A DNA stretch of 64,000 nt from Sporodiniella umbellata (taxonomy: Eukaryota > Mucoromycota > Mucoromycetes > Mucorales > Rhizopodaceae), in contig JAIXMR010000059.1 in the NCBI GenBank assembly GCA_025677835.1, positions 1-64,000 of the forward strand, written 5' to 3'. The notes beneath the pieces are model-generated. The model made no database searches. It was not told where the DNA came from and saw only the letters and a program-made list of their open reading frames with translations. Positions 23,859 to 38,214 of the stretch are shown in pieces (the first letter of the stretch is position 1; each line of letters opens with the position of its first letter). Position numbers and translations under genes: made by a program.

Positions 23859-26401
23859 CTAGTCCACTAGACAAAAAGAAAAAATAGCCTCCATATCTTC
23901 TACAGTTCTAGGTAGTATGGAATTAGGTTCTTCATATCCGTTACATGGGTCCTGTACTGCTTTGCTAATGTCGGTATAGGCTTCTAACAACAGTTTGACA
24001 GCTTTTGACTGAACCTGCTGATAGTGTTGTGCCGAAGACAGTTTTTGCAAGTGCGGAGATATATCCGCACTCAAAATAACCAGTGATGAATCAAGCTTAG
24101 ACAATGCATTTGTAAGCGATATGGCATCCATTTCAGGTAAAGACGACAGAGGTACCTATAGAAAGGTCAATCAATACAACCGTAATGAAGAATTTTCAAG
24201 TTACGCTTTACATCCGAGCTTTTGCTAGCCAAAGTTTCTTTTATTTTTGTCAATTTTGCTTGATTCAATAGTATATCATACTAATAAAAAAAAAAGTTAG
24301 TGGTTTAAACATGTGATGTTGATCAAACCTCTTCAAATGCAATTTCATTTAAAAAATCGCTTAAACGAGACGCAACGTTTTTTCTTTTGGATTCAGTAAA
24401 CGAATAAGGAGAGAGAATGTTCTGTTTGGACAAGCATTTAGCACAACTAAAGACAAATCAAAGCATGTAGGTTTAAAAAAATTACCAAGATATGGTTCAG
24501 ACAGTTGACTAAATATATGCTTTGATCTATTTTGCTTAGAGTTGACACTGATAGCTCACAAGTGTGTAATAATGGCTCTATTATGGCATCTAAAATTTCG
24601 GAAAAATTGAATTCTGGAAGGTTTTCTGTGTTGTTTGTTGCCACAATCAGAGATGAGTCATAGGATGCTAGTATTTCTTTCTAAAAAAAAAAAAAAGGAA
24701 CTTTTGATTGAGTAAAATTTCAATGGATATGTACTCATTGTATCTCACCATTTGGGATGTCATATCTCTTATTTTTGGTGTAATAGAAAGATCACGTCCG
24801 GGAACCTATTGTTTCTTTCTAAATACGCTGACTGACATTGAATATATTTTACCTCGCTCAATTCTTTTATTCCCTCAGCCTGAGCGCTCAGAGTGTTAAA
24901 AAAATGTTTGTAAGCCATTTCAGTCATTCTAAAGTTGCGCATGATGCAGTTATTAGATGAATTTTCTACACATAAATCTGTTTTACTCGTATAAAACCCT
25001 TTCGAGTCCAGCGTTTTTTTGCATCAATCTGCTCAAAGTCACCGAATAAAACTGAACCAGATTTGCTATTTTGTATGATGTGAGGGCTCCAGGCTGAAGT
25101 AAAAGTACTTGCTCAATTCTAGATTTTAGTGGTCGAGAGGTTCCTTCCATAGCACAATTCAGAACTTCATCTACAGTATCTGACACATTTATATTTAAAC
25201 CTGCTATGTCTTGATACTTGTCATCGCTTTTCCGAAACAGACTTTCCAGCATTTCTTTCTCTCCAGCACACGCTTGATGTATCCAGGCAAGCATATCACC
25301 TACATATCGAAGAGGATCAGGTGCTTGGAGTTCTATTGGCCGAGGTGTTCCTCCAGGACCTCCTCTAGTCAATGCATTTAAGAAAGCATGTGCTACTGCT
25401 TCATGTCTTGCAGAGGCTAATTCGTCTAGAATTGTTCTAAAAAAAAGTTTAGAAAAAGTTAGATATCTGTAATGCCTTACTGGAATAGTACTGGTCGATA
25501 CATCAAAGCGCGTAATGATTTGGTCATAAGTATGCTCACATCAATACTATCGCCACCAAACGCTAGCCTACTTTCATTTTGGGTCCACTTGTATAGTTTT
25601 TCGTATGCAGTTTCTTGATATTGTGACATTGAGTTCATTATTTCTCGACTAAAAAGCGATTTATACCTCTAATCTGTGTTTTATAAACATCAATTTACCC
25701 AGCTTTTTGATTCGTTGTAGTAAGTAGCAACTGGCAATCATTGTGAATTTGTTGAAGATGACTCAACGCTTCAAAAAACTCATTGTTAATGGGCCCTACG
25801 TATGTACTCAGAAGTTTGATTTCCTTATCGTTAAGCGTGAATTTTTCTAAAAATTTAGCAGCAATAGTAATTTGATTTAAGCATGCGGAGCTACAACACA
25901 AATGTATCAATCCAATTGTTGCCTTTTCTCTTTTTTTTTTTTTTTTTTACCTCTGTTCTTGCATAAGGTTGGCACGCTCAAGCATTTCTCTTGACTCTGA
26001 GTGGCTGTCTGATATATTTTCTTTCATATCTTTGCAAACATTTTTCATCTTTTTTGTTTGACTTTCGAGTTTTTCAAATTGCTAAAGTTTATACAATTAT
26101 GCTCTATACTTTTCTTTCCTTTTTGCTGCTTTACCAGAATAACTTTTTCGAAAGCTTGAAGAAAATTTTTGTTGGTTTCTATTTCCTTCTTTTCAATCGT
26201 TCCGCGCAAGTTGCGCTTCAAATTGGAATCATCTAGAGCTGAAATGTCAGAGAGAGAGGACAAGGCAGCCTTAACTCTAGCATCGTCAGCTGCAGATGAG
26301 TTGAGGATTTTGTTCAATTTTAATGCGAGCGATTTATTCGGTTTGTTTGAAATAGATAAAGTGGGTGGTTCCTCAGTAATGGGCGATCGCTGTAACTCCA
26401 T
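23859..26401 (-). CDS. COG6: Conserved oligomeric Golgi complex subunit 6
   Basis: Lobe B subunit of the COG tether for intra-Golgi retrograde vesicles. Eleven exons in coding order: 26401-26135, 26081-25951, 25890-25699, 25648-25481, 25436-24987, 24928-24853, 24805-24749, 24680-24486, 24421-24329, 24280-24212 and 24155-23859; 1,995 nt, 664 aa, typical length. The N-terminal region shows the Cog6 pattern LALKLNKILNSS...SLSDISALDD...NLRGTIEKKEIETNKNFL, followed by coiled-coil heptads. The family's best-conserved block, ALTRGGPGGTPRPIEL plus DPLRYVGDMLAWIHQA, lies about residues 270-310. The acceptor of exon 9 was set at 24421 (CCAAACAG), because the nearer AG gives an in-frame stop. Intron 2 contains a poly(T/A) run. 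Confidence 0.94.
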
Positions 26402-27040
26402 TGTTTAAAATAAGTCGCTTTGACAAAAAAAGTACCTTTTTTCTTTTTTTTTTTCTCCTCGCAATGTCCGCCATTTGAACAGTTTTGCCCAATAAAAATT
26501 GTCGGTAGGCTGTATAAACACAACAACACAAATATTGATATAAACACATCAGTTGAGATTTAGGCAAAGAAAACCAAATATCTGAGATAAACAGGTTCCT
26601 TTAGTTTTAAAAGAGAATTCAGGTAATTGTAAGGATTTTGGTTATTGTGTAAGACAAAGCTATACAAAATATATAAGGTGATGGAAACACAAAAAAGGCG
26701 ATTGCTTTAAAAGACCTAAAGACATTTCATGCCTTTACAAAACGATGCTTATCATATATTAGAGAAGCAAACACCCTCTCTTCAATACTCAAAAGGCATT
26801 TTCTAAAGACAAACATACATGAATTTTTTATTAAAATCCAAAGTTGTTGCACCCAAAATTGAATGCCTCTTCAAAGTTGTTTGGTATTGAGAAGCGATGA
26901 ATATTATTTTGTATTAAATAAAGAATAGTATTGTAGATTTGGGTTATTGCTGGAAACTGAATGTGTAAAATAATAATAAAAATAAGGATATCTAGTCATA
27001 GATATAAAAATCGAACTAAAAATAAGGATCCGTTAAAAAT
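26402..27040. other. AT-rich intergenic region upstream of COG6
   Basis: COG6 promoter followed by AT-rich DNA with no recognised gene; leads into the repeats starting at 27041. Confidence 0.5.
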
Positions 27041-27720
27041 GACCACCAGATCTTGTAGAGTAGATCAAACTATATAGTAAAATAAATAAAATTAAAGCAA
27101 AAAAGGAATTCACAGAGAAGGATAAATTCAACTCCTAGGGATCAAAATAAAATAAAATATAAAGAAGGGCATTCAGTGACAAGTGTTTGTATGAATGTTT
27201 ATAAACTTTATAATTATTTATATAGCTGTTTGATAAGTTATTTGATGACTATTGTTTTTGGGTTTTTATACATTTTCTGGCTTTCTGTATTTTGTAATGA
27301 TATTCTTTTTATAGTTAGTTTGACATGTCAAAGATGTAGTTATTATAGATCTCCAACATGTTGTAGATGTCGTTGGTATGACCCATAAAATTTTCTTTTT
27401 AGTCAATGTTGACTACTTCGCCATTCTCGTCTATAACACTGTTATTTCGTTGGTTTGGAGAAGCTTGTAGATAAAAGTAAAATAAAAGTAAAGGTTATCT
27501 GCTTGTAGATAAAGTAATTCTTGAATAAAAGCAGCAGAAATAAGTAGTATTTGTAGTGACCACCAGATCTTATAAAGTAGATCAAACTAAAGTAAAATAA
27601 AGTAAAATAAAATAAAGTAAAAAAGGGGTTACAAAGAAGGAATTATACGTCTTCTAGGGATCTATATTCAGTGATTCTTGTTATATGAATATTTATATCA
27701 ACTATCTTTATGATAAATTT
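27041..27720 (+). repeat. Pair of diverged direct repeats about 516 bp apart
   Basis: Copy 1 starts at 27041 and copy 2 at 27557 with the same 13 bp GACCACCAGATCT. Both continue with TAGATCAAACTA, AAATAAA-rich DNA, a GAGAAGGA/AAAGAAGGA block, CTCCTAGGGATC/TTCTAGGGATC, ATTCAGTGA and ATGAATGTTTATA/ATGAATATTTATA. Each copy is about 160 bp. No coding capacity; looks like a non-autonomous element or old tandem duplication. Confidence 0.75.
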
Positions 27721-27846
27721 AATAGTATTTATTGATAAAGATATGTATTTAAGATAATGTTATAGGTGATATTTGATGATTGTATTGATATTAAAAAACA
27801 TTGAGGTTTATATAGTTTTCCTCAGTTATAGTGTTCTGGGTGATAA

Positions 27847-27940
27847 AAGTGTTGTGGTGTTACTGGTGTTAGGTGCGTTAGGTGTATTAGGGTGTTAGGT
27901 GTATTGGTGCGTTAGGTGTGTTAGGGGTGACACAATGTCA
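27847..27940 (+). repeat. GTGTTAG-type minisatellite ending in a short perfect hairpin
   Basis: About eight loosely repeated 7-10 bp units of the form GTG(CG/TA/TG)TTAG (27851-27930), followed by GGTGACACAATGTCACC, a 7-bp perfect inverted repeat with a 3-nt loop. The units resemble the TTAGGG telomere motif but are not exact. The arrangement also resembles subterminal repeats beside a transposon end. It lies just downstream of the 61-codon gene. Confidence 0.7.
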
Positions 27941-27959
27941 CCATGAACAAAAATAGATT

Positions 27960-28374
27960 TTACCATACAGAATTTAACACTTCACCTTGTACAGGAGAGC
28001 ACGTTGTTAGATCCTCAGTAAGATCAATAAAAGGAATGTCGTTATTCGCGACAACACTACAACTATCCCCTATCTGCAAGGAAAAAGAAAAATAGTTTTA
28101 TAAGACTGTATCAGATTTTATAAACAGTTTCTCAACATCGGTATAGCGTCCGAGGAGGCTACAACCTTTCAGCCAGGGATAACTTGTGTTTCATCATCAT
28201 GTCAGTCTAACGAAATAGTTTTCGTCTACGCAGTAAGCTTTCACACCTCGAGTGTGCGACCAATTTTGTTAACTTGTGCCGCACAGAGTTCAAGGCGGAT
28301 AAAGTCACTGGGTTTTCAAATCCCGACTGTTATATATACCCATTTAAATTCACGTGATTGTACGGACCGGACAT
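27960..28374 (-). CDS. Small protein (61 aa), snoRNA host gene; function unknown
   Basis: Built by hand because its exons are too short to stand out alone. Exons in coding order: 28374-28364, 28307-28247 and 28073-27960 (186 nt). The product starts MSGPDFIRLELCAAQVNKIG, continues RTLEIGDSCSVVANNDIPF, then IDLTEDLTTCSPVQGEVLNS, and ends VW. Balanced composition and the match of phases across both introns support it. Intron 1 (28308-28363, 56 nt) uses a weak donor GTACAA; an alternative GTATAT donor would leave a 32-nt intron and add eight residues. Intron 2 (28074-28246, 173 nt) is unusually long here and encloses a box C/D snoRNA in the same orientation. I do not recognise the family. Confidence 0.6.
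28103..28208 (-). ncRNA. Intronic box C/D snoRNA, predicted snR38 equivalent (LSU Gm2815-type guide)
   Basis: On the minus strand a 6-bp terminal stem AGACTG/CAGTCT (28208-28203 with 28108-28103) flanks a C box ATGATGA (within 28191-28200) and a D box CTGA (28114-28111). Inside are a D' box CTGA (28172-28169) and a C'-like TGTTGA (28137-28132). Immediately upstream of D', the guide AGTTATCCCTG is complementary to CAGGGATAACT, a universally conserved LSU rRNA stretch at the peptidyl-transferase centre. The D'+5 rule places methylation on the middle G of that GGG, equivalent to yeast G2815 (E. coli G2446), the site yeast assigns to snR38, also an intronic snoRNA. The second guide has no target I can name. 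Confidence 0.8.
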
Positions 28375-28893
28375 TGTGTGCCTTAGATTTGTATTCAGCT
28401 AAAAAATATGAACGTCTGAATTTAGCACACCATATTTAGTTCAATATAATAGGCTAAAAACACCGATCATGTTCTGACTTGCCTCCAAATACGCTTGGAA
28501 TAACTCAATTGAAGAAATAATGAATTACACATGAGAAGACATCGCAACTTATACGAAATGTGTGCAGTTTTTAGTTGTTTTTTTTTCTTTTTGAAAATAT
28601 GTTCTTGATTGTCGGCTCAATTTAAGTACAATACATCTGCCGCAATTCATTTAGAAAGCTAGAATCTACATCATTAGCTACATTTAAGAACAATTATTTA
28701 TCACAATCTAAGATGTTTCTCCTTGGCCAGCAACTTTGATACATTTAGTCTCAAGTTACTTTTCCGATAGTTTTTTGCTACTAAAATAAGACATGTAATG
28801 GTGTTTCCCTTATATTTGAATTAACAATATATTTAAACGAGATGACCTTTGTTGAAATTTAGATTATGCGAGACGTTTCCCATAAGTAAACCT
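28375..28893. other. Intergenic region upstream of the snoRNA host gene
   Basis: Holds the promoter of the host gene; no other gene seen. AT-rich with a poly(T) run near 28578. Confidence 0.4.
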
Positions 28894-29358
28894 GACATCT
28901 TGAAGTGTACATTAAGTATGGAAGTAATTCCGCATTCTCTAATCGGTCGTAACTGTGAAATCAGGCAAAAAAAAGACAAGTTTAACGAGACTGAATAAAG
29001 ATGATTTTTATTTGGTTTGGGATATCGAGTGTATTTATACTGTTTGAGAAATAGAACTGGATCTTTACCTTAGTCATTCTTAATAGCTAAAAGTGGACTG
29101 ATTTTGTCAATCTGATGGAAAAGTTCTTACATTATTAATTAGCTTGTAGAGCTTCGGTAATGTCCTATTGTGTCTCGATCTAGTCGTACTAGTTTAAGAG
29201 ATACTTGGTTAGGAGTGTAAGCCGTCTGTGCTGTAAATCTTATGTTGCCATTTCTTATTATGGGTTGTTGACTAGTTTAGGTAAGTAATACATGTAGTTA
29301 CGACCGATTAGAGAATATGAGGGATTGCCTCCATACTTGATGTGCACTTCTAGATGTT
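28894..29358. repeat. Inverted repeat pair of about 60 bp
   Basis: The segment 28894-28953 and the reverse complement of 29296-29358 align throughout: ACATCTTGAAGTG/ACATCTAGAAGTG, AAGTATGGA and CATTCTCTAATCGGTCGTAA/TATTCTCTAATCGGTCGTAA. The two arms are separated by about 340 bp that contains the left arm of the larger inverted repeat. Confidence 0.75.
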
Positions 29359-29925
29359 AGACCTTCTTATATGTAACTCATTATTCTTCAGTTAAATTAT
29401 TCAAAGTGTATTCTCAAGTAAGTCAGGATACGATAGTAAATACATATACCACTTACCTTACTTAGTCAACTACTTATATTAATACATGTTCCTATAGAGA
29501 AACGTCCCATATTATATACTTGAAATGCTATGAATTCTCATGTCTTAGATAGATTGTGACATTCTAATAGATGTGGCACATTTAAAAACAAAAAAGCATT
29601 TCAGTTATACCCAACTTTTAAAAAGTGACAGGAAACCAAGTATTTTGAAGTGGCTGAACAAACGCTTTTCTCTGATAACATTGGTTTGTTTATAAAGATG
29701 TTGTTTTTTTCTAAATTTTATTTACATGGTATAATCCAGAGTATCTCTCCAAAAGTGCCACAACTAACTAACAAAGAGAAGACATCCTCATCAGATTAAT
29801 AGGGGTAATTCGCTTTTAGCTATAAAGAACGATTACGATAAAGGTTTGAATCTTTTTCTCAAATAGTATAAATAAACTTGATGTTGATACCCAAATAAAA
29901 ACATCTTTATTCAGTCTCGTTTAAC
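28981..29925. repeat. Long, diverged terminal inverted repeats of about 140 bp (possible MITE-like element)
   Basis: Reading inward from both ends gives TTTAACGAGACTGAATAAAG on the plus strand from 28981 and GTTAAACGAGACTGAATAAA on the minus strand from about 29926. The arms then share a T-rich stretch, TATTTATACT(G/A)TTTGAGAAA, TAATAGCTAAAAG/TATAGCTAAAAG and CAATCTGATG/TAATCTGATG. The element is about 945 bp with no coding capacity. The right end is only about 33 bp from the REX4 stop codon. Confidence 0.75.
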
Positions 29926-29957
29926 TCCTCTTTTTCTGGCCTGGTTTATCAACGCTA

Positions 29958-31140
29958 TCAGCTTTCATCGATGCTCTTTAGTTTCTTCATGAAAAGCCCA
30001 CTTCGAGTGCCAATCGACTTTTCCCATTCAATTTTTACGTTTTTGTATAGTTCAATAGTGAATTGAGCATCTTCTACCTAAAGATAGAAAATTACAAGTA
30101 AAGATCATGATTTCTTGCATTTTTCTTGAAAATAAAAGACTTACAGAGGAGTGACTTCCCGATTGAATAGAAATACCCAGCACTTCTTTTACCAACATTT
30201 TTAAACCGGGAGTTTTTCCTTTTGCCATTTTTCTAAAAGGTTTGTAGCGAGATGTATCACGTATCAAAAGGGCAGGGTGATCCAACATTAGCACTTTCAA
30301 GTCGTTGTATACAGCATGCCCCACCAAAATACGGTTTTTAATAAGAGCGGCTACTTTTTCTTGTGTTTCTCTAAATGTAATAGCTAAAAAAAAATGAGTC
30401 GCATTACAATGTTGTTTTTTTAAAAACATGATCTGTACCCTCATCGCCTTCCAAATGTTCTCGTTGGATACCGCTTACGTGCGTACGATAGTCTGTGACT
30501 TTCTCAAGAGGTTTAACATATACATCTAACAACACAGCACCGTTAAAGTTGACAATAGATACTCTAGCCAGTGCGGAATCTACTCCTCCTGGACCAACAC
30601 CCACCATTTCACAATCAATGGCTACAAATTTGCCTAACCTTTTTGAGAAAGACATTAACAATTAAGTGGGTGTTGTAGTTTCTTACTTGGAGTCTGAGGC
30701 ATTCATTTTTTTAACAAGTGCTTCCTTATCAACCACCTTTTTAGTTTTTGCTCCATACACGCTTTGAAGTACATCGTCTTCAATATCGTCTCCAAACCAA
30801 AGGTCATTCTTTTTGGGTATCTCAGGCTCTCTTTTAATCTCTTTTTTTAATGCCTTTATGGTTCTATATATAAAATGAATATGAGGAAAAGGTTTTCTGC
30901 TTATTAAGAAGACATTGATTTTACTCTATTTTTTGTTTCTTGTTTCCTTTGTAGTTTGGACTGACATGAAGATCGCTGGTCTTTCTTTTTTTGTTCTCTT
31001 CGTCTTTAGGTGGAATGGTCTATAGATTAAATAAGGTTTTAGATATTAAAGCACCCGGATCTTGTATGCTACTTTACAGACAGTATTTTTTTCCAGTTTG
31101 AAGAAGGGGCAACCTTCACTTGCTTTTTTCCTTTTACCAT
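29958..31140 (-). CDS. REX4: RNA exonuclease 4 (Rex4, DEDDh 3'-5' exonuclease)
   Basis: Nucleolar 3'-5' exonuclease involved in pre-rRNA processing. Exons in coding order: 31140-31078, 31019-30925, 30863-30687, 30638-30439, 30383-30145 and 30077-29958, giving 297 aa, the normal size. A Lys-rich N-terminus ([18 protein letters not shown] and further KK motifs) fits nucleolar targeting. Catalytic motifs are Exo[16 protein letters not shown] (Asp, Glu), Exo[17 protein letters not shown] (Asp) and ExoIII with His and Asp in [29 protein letters not shown] is also family-typical. Divergent from the GH15 gene; the two start codons are 168 bp apart. Confidence 0.95.
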
Positions 31141-36617: not shown

Positions 36618-37984
36618 AGGCAGTGGATTCAAAACCTATGAAGAAATGCACACAAATATGAATCTATTGAAAAAAAGTAACTGCTATAAAATAGAGCAAC
36701 AATAGTGATGGTAACGAAAAAAGAAAAAAAGAAAATAAGAAAAAGACCAAAAAACAAAATAAAAAACTTTAAATTACCTGCGGCTATAAACTATCATCGT
36801 AAATAATTGATAAAGTGTTAATCGCAACAAGTTTGCTAATCATGTGCTTAGAAAAATTATATTGGCCTTATTATACATCATATTAGGCCTAAGATTGATA
36901 TTAAATTTTGATTTTCGTTTCAAGATGTTTTCTACTATAAAACAATGGGTGAACCAGAGAGAACTGTACAAGCTGGTTAGTTGTATGATGTTCGAATTAA
37001 TAAATATGAGCCTTTTTAAAACATCTCTTGTTTTACTTTCCAATTTCTAATATGTTCGCATGAAATCCTTGGTGTATAGCAGATTTTGGGAATATAGTCT
37101 TGAAGCATTCAAAACTACTTTAACAAACAAATACTCAAGTAGTTTTTTAGCCTATAAGTATAATTTTTGTATTTGTTGTAGCAAGACAGCTGGGAGTTTT
37201 TACTATCTGTATACTTAGTAATATAGGGATTGTGTATGTATACTTCAATATATAGATGGAGCCCGAAGTAAAAAAAATGAGAAAATAAAACACACAAATA
37301 TATAAAAGTATGCAAACCGCTATAGCTTGATATAGCAGGCTAGTATGTTTACATATTCTAATTTTATTTTGGATTTCAATGTTTTGTATGCAAAGGCTAT
37401 TCCGAACACTGGGAACTGTTGACAATTTTTCGGACTTGTTTTTTTCAAAAAAAAAAAAAATACAAGTGGGCCCTGTTGAAGATGAAAATTATACACTTTC
37501 TCCTTTTATTAGATAACCTTTCTGCGTTAAAACTAAAGCCTATACAATACACTCTTATTCTTTCTTTGAAGAAAAAAACGATGAGCACAGTGCGAGGATT
37601 TTCCTGAGCTAAAGCAATATGACGGAATCAACGAACAGACATCTGAGAGAGATGCGTATTTATAGCTTTTTATAACAAGAAATGTGTTTTCGAGTAAAAG
37701 GAGGGTGTAAGAGACCTGTGGTATTCTGTTTTTCTGAGTACGTGTACTCCTTACTTTTTTTGCACTATGAGGATAACGGAGAAGATTTTGAATTTTCTCG
37801 AAGAGAAAAGATGTGATTCTTAATGTAGTTTTCAATCTGAGGCAAGCAAAGAAAGAAAGTGTATAGCGTATAGCTTTACTAGAAAAAAGAGACACAGGGT
37901 AGCAAAAAAACCAAATGATGAGTATTAAAGGCGAATATGATTTATTAATGATTATAGTTTTATTCTGATGGTTTTTTATACAAA
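36618..37984. other. Intergenic AT-rich region
   Basis: No recognised gene. A minus-strand frame at 37533-37895 has unremarkable composition and no signature. Confidence 0.5.
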
Positions 37985-38214
37985 TATATGTGTGTATGTG
38001 TGTATGTGTGTATGTGTGTATGTGTGTATGTGTGTATGTGTGTATGTGTGTATGTGTGTATGTGTGTATGTGTGTATGTGTGTGTATGTGTGTATGTGTG
38101 TGTATGTGTGTATGTGTGTATGTGTGTATGTGTGTATGTGTGTATGTGTGTATGTGTGTATGTGTGTATGTGTGTATGTGTGTATGTGTGTATGTGTGTA
38201 TGTGTGTATGTGTG

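What the first reader, a model, noticed from the sequence alone, without database searches (positions are those of the whole stretch)
28103..28208. Box C/D snoRNA hidden in an intron, with a guide for the peptidyl-transferase centre
The minus strand shows C, D', C' and D boxes in order, closed by a perfect 6-bp terminal stem (AGACTG/CAGTCT). Directly upstream of D' are 11 nt complementary to CAGGGATAACT, the universally conserved LSU rRNA segment. The D'+5 rule points at the middle G, equivalent to yeast G2815, which yeast assigns to snR38. The RNA lies inside a 173-nt intron, much longer than most introns here.
Basis: partly seen in the sequence, partly recalled or inferred. Interest (0 to 1): 0.78.

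Follow-up and report, generated by a model that had tools for sequence, protein, structure and literature searches.

The report
Fungal snR38-type ribosome methylation guide
This is very probably the local copy of an ancient small RNA that tells the cell where to put a methyl group in the catalytic centre of its ribosome; it is well identified, but ordinary.

Summary
On the minus strand, 28208-28103 carries boxes C, D', C' and D in order, a perfect 6-bp terminal stem, and an 11-nt guide complementary to CAGGGATAACT beside D'. The D'+5 rule points to the middle G, yeast Gm2815, assigned to snR38 (PMC8307265 table). Rfam's snoR38 model fits exactly here: 32.3 bits, E 0.0024 in 551 bases, the best of 3 matches in the 25.9-Mb genome. 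The C-guide-D' pattern occurs once in the genome. The score is below Rfam's cut-off of 45, but both U14 copies found here also miss theirs. The contig belongs to Sporodiniella umbellata, Mucorales. The site is conserved between plants, human and yeast (PMC3511168), and Neurospora has an intronic 72-nt counterpart (PMC2780460). Hence a new member of a known kind. The intron is plausible but unproven: good 3' splice site, weak 5' site, no canonical branch point between the RNA and the AG. No protein-coding host was found, so a non-coding host and an independent Pol II gene are both open. Expression, methylation and the species' own LSU rRNA were not tested (rRNA search unanswered 12 times).

The parts
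28103..28208 (-). box C/D snoRNA, snR38 type (106 nt as bounded by the terminal stem)
   Evidence: boxes, stem and guide; Rfam snoR38 28104-28207, 32.3 bits, cut-off 45
28203..28208 (-). 5' arm of terminal stem AGACTG
28194..28200 (-). box C ATGATGA
28174..28184 (-). guide AGTTATCCCTG, complementary to LSU CAGGGATAACT
   Evidence: target segment present in fungal LSU primers, not checked in this species
28177..28177 (-). D'+5 nucleotide, opposite the middle G (yeast G2815)
   Evidence: counted from D' at 28172-28169
28169..28172 (-). box D' CTGA
28140..28166 (-). hairpin between D' and C' (8 bp with one bulge); makes the RNA longer than the 72-nt Neurospora counterpart
   Evidence: predicted fold -8.9 kcal/mol of the cut-out piece; also in the fold of the whole RNA
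28132..28138 (-). box C' ATGTTGA
   Evidence: read; aligned to the UGauGA segment of RF00213
28111..28114 (-). box D CTGA
28103..28108 (-). 3' arm of terminal stem CAGTCT
28074..28246 (-). predicted host intron, 173 nt (GTGTGA ... TTTTTCCTTGCAG); 38 nt before and 29 nt after the RNA
   Evidence: sequence only; no transcript data
28331..28338 (-). TATATATA, possible TATA box of the host transcript; CACGTG 12 nt further upstream at 28356-28351
   Evidence: read by eye; no promoter test was run

Best explanation
A single-copy box C/D snoRNA, the Sporodiniella counterpart of snR38. Its D' guide pairs with CAGGGATAACT in LSU rRNA and, in a complex of the core C/D proteins with fibrillarin, directs 2'-O-methylation of the middle G (yeast G2815) in the peptidyl-transferase region. 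It would be made by Pol II, more likely than not inside the intron of a short non-coding host transcript, and trimmed by exonucleases up to the terminal stem. The confidence given is for identity and guide function, whatever the host; the intron part alone I put at about 0.6. Shown here: boxes, stem, guide, family match, uniqueness. Inferred: transcription, splicing, protein binding, methylation.
For: Boxes, stem and 11-nt guide in the right order. RF00213 aligns over its full length, E 0.0024 for 551 bases against 4227 families. Three further families that bear the same guide letters, TtnuCD17 (Tetrahymena), ceN61 (Caenorhabditis) and Afu_328 (Aspergillus), also fall on this place, with weak E-values of 0.37, 0.029 and 0.67. 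Best of 3 RF00213 matches at E up to 10 in the genome, 62 of 5327 candidates scored; of the other two, L003 lacks the guide and L004 has the guide letters in what reads as the end of a coding frame, without an RTGATGA. The pattern occurs once. Gm2815 by snR38, marked PTC and over 85% modified in yeast (PMC8307265 table passage). Neurospora CD23: 72 nt, intronic, 26S-Gm2773, D', snR38 homologue (PMC2780460).
Against: Rfam score below the gathering score (32.3 against 45); 0 matches at gathering scores in the window. E-value only 0.027 over the genome and 0.016 over 26400-30100. A C/D-like stretch without a known target elsewhere in the window reaches 28.1 bits with another C/D model, and weak RF00213 matches ring in 9 of 14 named control genomes, 0 over the cut-off, so the Rfam score alone is not decisive; the guide is. 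No expression data. Own LSU rRNA not seen. Whole-RNA fold unremarkable. Weak 5' splice site and missing CTRAY argue against the intron part.
Confidence: 0.94

Rival explanations
1. The same snoRNA, but not intronic: an independent Pol II gene with the TATA-like element at 28338-28331, whose leader and trailer are trimmed by nucleases without splicing. (A rival to the intron part only.)
For: TATATATA about 125 nt upstream of the RNA (read); weak 5' splice site; no Met in the stop-free frame of the putative exons and no homologue of it. In N. crassa nine of 55 C/D snoRNAs are intergenic with a putative Pol II promoter (PMC2780460).
Against: Polypyrimidine tract plus CAG 29 nt after the RNA and GAG|GTGTGA 38 nt before it; in N. 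crassa 45 of 55 C/D snoRNAs are intronic; in Rhizopus oryzae the snoRNAs of three clusters, not including snR38, are all placed in introns, by prediction with part of the introns verified over all species (PMC3596301 section 5).
Confidence: 0.33
2. The snoRNA sits in an intron of a short protein-coding gene. (A rival to the non-coding host only.)
For: Joining the exons at 28247/28073 gives one stop-free frame of 60 codons.
Against: No Met in that frame; no candidate shares three 5-residue words with it in a search limited to proteins of similar length; in the own genome only its own two exons match. The neighbours, COG6 downstream and an ISG20L2-like exonuclease upstream, look like separate genes.
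Confidence: 0.07
3. Chance assembly of boxes with no RNA made, or a decayed pseudogene.
For: No expression evidence; below the Rfam cut-off; guide-less C/D-like stretches also occur.
Against: Guide plus D' plus C box expected about 9e-7 times per window; it is the one such pattern in the genome, so a pseudogene would leave the genome without a recognisable guide for a site conserved between plants, human and yeast.
Confidence: 0.02

Closest known systems
snR38 (yeast) / human snR38A (SNORD1 group; that these are the same is recalled) / AtsnoR38Y (plant), Rfam RF00213 snoR38
   Same: Same D' guide letters as the model, same box order, alignment over the whole model; all three filed under RF00213 in PMC3511168.
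   Different: 106 nt against a 91-position model, with a hairpin between D' and C'; below the family's gathering score; another locus: snR38 lies in the TEF4 intron in yeast (PMC3454408), SNORD1A-C come from SNHG16 introns in human (PMC7154078).
Neurospora crassa CD23
   Same: 11-nt D' guide, listed as snR38 homologue, intronic (PMC2780460).
   Different: 72 nt instead of 106.
UHG/gas5-like non-coding snoRNA host genes of fungi
   Same: Short exons without conserved ORF around a snoRNA; such hosts are described for N. crassa clusters and fungal clusters including Rhizopus oryzae.
   Different: Only one snoRNA seen in 26400-30100; splicing not shown.

Membership tests
box C/D snoRNA | C box RUGAUGA near the 5' end and D box CUGA near the 3' end | tested here: met
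box C/D snoRNA | terminal stem bringing C and D together | tested here: met
   6 bp perfect
box C/D snoRNA | guide of about 10 nt or more complementary to rRNA directly upstream of D or D' | tested here: met
   11 nt, one nt from D'; target letters from fungal LSU primers in PMC3112068 and PMC2600263, not from this species
box C/D snoRNA | stable RNA bound by fibrillarin, NOP56, NOP58 and SNU13 | not testable with these tools
   no RNA or protein-binding data
snR38 guides (functional counterparts of snR38) | D' guide placing methylation on the G2815 equivalent | tested here: met
   by the D'+5 rule C28177 is opposite the middle G; yeast assignment from PMC8307265. Methylation itself not tested.
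Rfam RF00213 snoR38 | score at or above the curated gathering score (a formal cut-off, not a biological feature) | tested here: not met
   32.3 against 45 bits; both U14 matches in this genome also miss their cut-off, 49.4 and 49.1 against 64. I therefore call it a functional counterpart, not a formal RF00213 member.
non-coding snoRNA host gene (UHG type) | snoRNA in a spliced intron | tested here: inconclusive
   splice signals by eye only
non-coding snoRNA host gene (UHG type) | spliced exons without conserved protein | tested here: inconclusive
   no homologue in a length-limited protein search, only itself in the own genome, no Met in the frame; no relative's exons could be compared

The most novel reading that the evidence does not exclude
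The D box doubles as the intron's branch site: the one CTRAY match in the last 45 nt of the putative intron is CTGAT at 28114-28110, the D box itself, 37 nt before the AG (read). Splicing and snoRNP assembly on D would then compete, so that each transcript yields either a spliced host or a snoRNA, a built-in switch.
Probability: 0.04. Interest if true: 0.5.

Novelty: new member of a known kind. Interest (0 to 1): 0.16.

Why it matters
It supplies a guide for a core ribosomal methylation in an early-diverging fungal genome. It also shows that Rfam's cut-offs miss good snoRNA candidates in this genome (this RNA and both U14 matches), so catalogues made at those cut-offs will be incomplete here. 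It does not change any view of how ribosomes are modified.

Tried and rejected
Second guide before box D: the 12 nt before D are nearly all A/U; not tested against rRNA, because the LSU search did not complete. Not claimed.

Other snoRNAs in the host region: cmscan of 26400-30100 at E up to 3 gave 5 rows; 4 overlap this RNA, the fifth is a weak match to a bacterial sRNA.

Other genomic copies: RF00213 rows 2 and 3 (25.1 and 21.1 bits) were read and rejected: L003 lacks the guide (it does hold an ATGATGA), L004 has the guide letters in what reads as a coding end, without an RTGATGA (coding judged by eye). In the control, 9 of 14 named prokaryote genomes ring with RF00213 at E up to 10, 0 over the cut-off.

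Intron survey by open frames: a strict version gave 4 calls, a looser one 17 against 16 in the control with a scrambled donor; both dropped. Replaced by one annotated protein with 5 introns.

Protein-coding host: disfavoured for lack of Met, homologues and second copies.

Literature: one search listed 20 of 25 papers, 20 of 203, 15 of 186, 10 of 15, 5 of 5. In the rows listed I saw no title or abstract start about this snoRNA in Sporodiniella or Rhizopus; that is not proof that none is in print. Papers were seen as passages only, apart from the outline and section 5 of PMC3596301 and section 6 part 1 of PMC3511168.

Full report
What is there. The minus strand of 28208-28103 reads AGACTG (stem), ATGATGA (C), AGTTATCCCTG (guide), CTGA (D'), a hairpin, ATGTTGA (C'), CTGA (D), CAGTCT (stem). 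C, guide, D', D and the two stem arms were located by script. C' was read from the sequence. The hairpin is predicted at -8.9 kcal/mol when cut out and is also in the fold of the whole RNA. The guide is the reverse complement of CAGGGATAACT. The first nucleotide upstream of D' (G28173) is opposite an A and does not pair; the fifth (C28177) is opposite the middle G. The duplex is 11 bp, calculated -18.9 kcal/mol with target letters partly recalled.

Is it more than chance. From base composition, 11-mer plus D' plus C box at these distances is expected about 9e-7 times in the window, both strands. In the 25.9-Mb genome the pattern ATGATGA, 3-33 nt, GTTATCCCTG, 0-3 nt, CTGA occurs once, here; its reversed control occurs 0 times. 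The pattern was written after seeing the sequence. A looser scan of the window for a C box and a D box 45-130 nt on found 7 pairs, 3 of them with a stem of 5 bp or more, so the box grammar alone is not rare. The guide makes the case.

What it is. At gathering scores Rfam finds nothing in the window. At E up to 10 in 551 bases it lists 7 matches. The best is snoR38 RF00213 over its whole length (32.3 bits, cut-off 45, E 0.0024). Next by score come TtnuCD17, ceN61 and Afu_328, which carry the same guide letters in Tetrahymena, Caenorhabditis and Aspergillus (E 0.37, 0.029, 0.67); the last three are sR30, sR39 and sR10, weak. In the whole genome RF00213 gives 3 matches at E up to 10, with 62 of 5327 candidates scored; ours is first with E 0.027, and the other two are chance matches on reading. 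Missing the cut-off is a weak objection here: U14 is found twice in this genome, at 49.4 and 49.1 bits against a cut-off of 64. A caution in the other direction is that a C/D-like stretch at 37907-37976 without a known target reaches 28.1 bits with another model.

Organism. A purine permease encoded at 47134-45074 is listed as Sporodiniella umbellata on a contig of 156,941 bases, the length of the window's contig C154, and matches the window exon by exon. NCBI taxonomy places the species in Mucorales, Rhizopodaceae. A leucine-rich-repeat protein of the window has its best named relative in Rhizopus delemar at 76% identity.

Target. In yeast 25S, Gm2815 is assigned to snR38, more than 85% modified, marked PTC and H, which I take as human (PMC8307265, table passage seen). 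[quoted passage not shown] Two fungal LSU primers contain CACAGGGATAACTGGC (PMC3112068 and PMC2600263, passages seen). The species' own LSU could not be read: twelve identical requests did not complete. That A2451 of E. coli numbering lies inside the guided segment is recalled, not from a call.

Known relatives. Table 1 of PMC3511168, conserved modification sites, lists AtsnoR38Y (Gm2805), human snR38A (Gm4362) and yeast SnR38 (Gm2812 in its numbering), all RF00213 (section 6 part 1 read). Neurospora CD23 is a 72-nt intronic homologue (PMC2780460, passages). In yeast the host is TEF4 (PMC3454408, passages); in human SNORD1A-C come from SNHG16 introns (PMC7154078, passage). Here the neighbours are COG6 downstream and an exonuclease fragment of ISG20L2 type upstream (E 8.1e-11), both read from the same strand; no TEF4-like gene was seen next to it.

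Intron and host. 28246-28074 would be a 173-nt intron with 38 nt before and 29 nt after the RNA. Neurospora distances to the 5' splice site are mainly 41-60 nt (PMC2780460). For: a polypyrimidine tract and CAG; five permease introns are 43-61 nt, so this one has room for a snoRNA; in Rhizopus oryzae the snoRNAs of three clusters are all placed in introns, and the spliced RNAs of such fungal hosts lack long ORFs (PMC3596301 section 5). Against: the donor GTGTGA is not among the five permease donors GTAAGT, GTAAAT, GTGAGT, GTACTG and GTACAG (read), and no CTRAY lies between the RNA and the AG. The joined exons have one stop-free frame of 60 codons without Met; no homologue was found in a length-limited protein search, and in the own genome only the two exons themselves match. 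A TATA-like TATATATA at 28338-28331 with CACGTG just upstream could be the promoter (read by eye). I put the intron at about 0.6; the rivals' odds are shares of that question.

Surroundings. The stretch 27822-28466 has no match elsewhere in the own genome (28071-28249 was covered, one match, itself). Upstream, strong repeat matches begin at about 28882 and run to about 29953; weaker ones lie at 28735-28889 and 28467-28535. In all, 91 matches to 28250-29980 are listed, self matches included. Downstream, matches run from about 27821 to 27040; 28 matches to 27000-28070, self match included.

Verdict.

Noticed in passing
window 37907-37976 +: A second C/D-like stretch with ATGATGA, CTGA and a 9-bp A-rich terminal stem; 15 of 18 rows of a permissive cmscan of 37800-38100 are C/D models below cut-off (best snoZ199, 28.1 bits, E 0.0063 in 301 bases). 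No D' seen, no target assigned. Could be chance next to a microsatellite.
   Followed up: partly
window 28882-29953: Dispersed repeats in nested, partly inverted arrangement (unit of about 480 nt at 28954-29433; arms 28958-29016 and 29889-29947 83% complementary); 91 matches to 28250-29980 in the own genome, self matches included.
   Followed up: partly
window 27856-27929: Degenerate telomere-like tandem array (unit about GTGTTAGGT) just downstream of the snoRNA.
   Followed up: no
window 27040-27821: Further dispersed repeats between the snoRNA and COG6; 28 matches to 27000-28070 in the own genome, self match included.
   Followed up: no
L006 1299-1900 and L007 1195-1639: Two U14 matches in this genome, each with a weak snR107-like C/D match beside it on the same strand (E 0.017 and 0.097), and a weak snR48-like match beside one (E 0.058); all below Rfam cut-offs.
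   Followed up: partly
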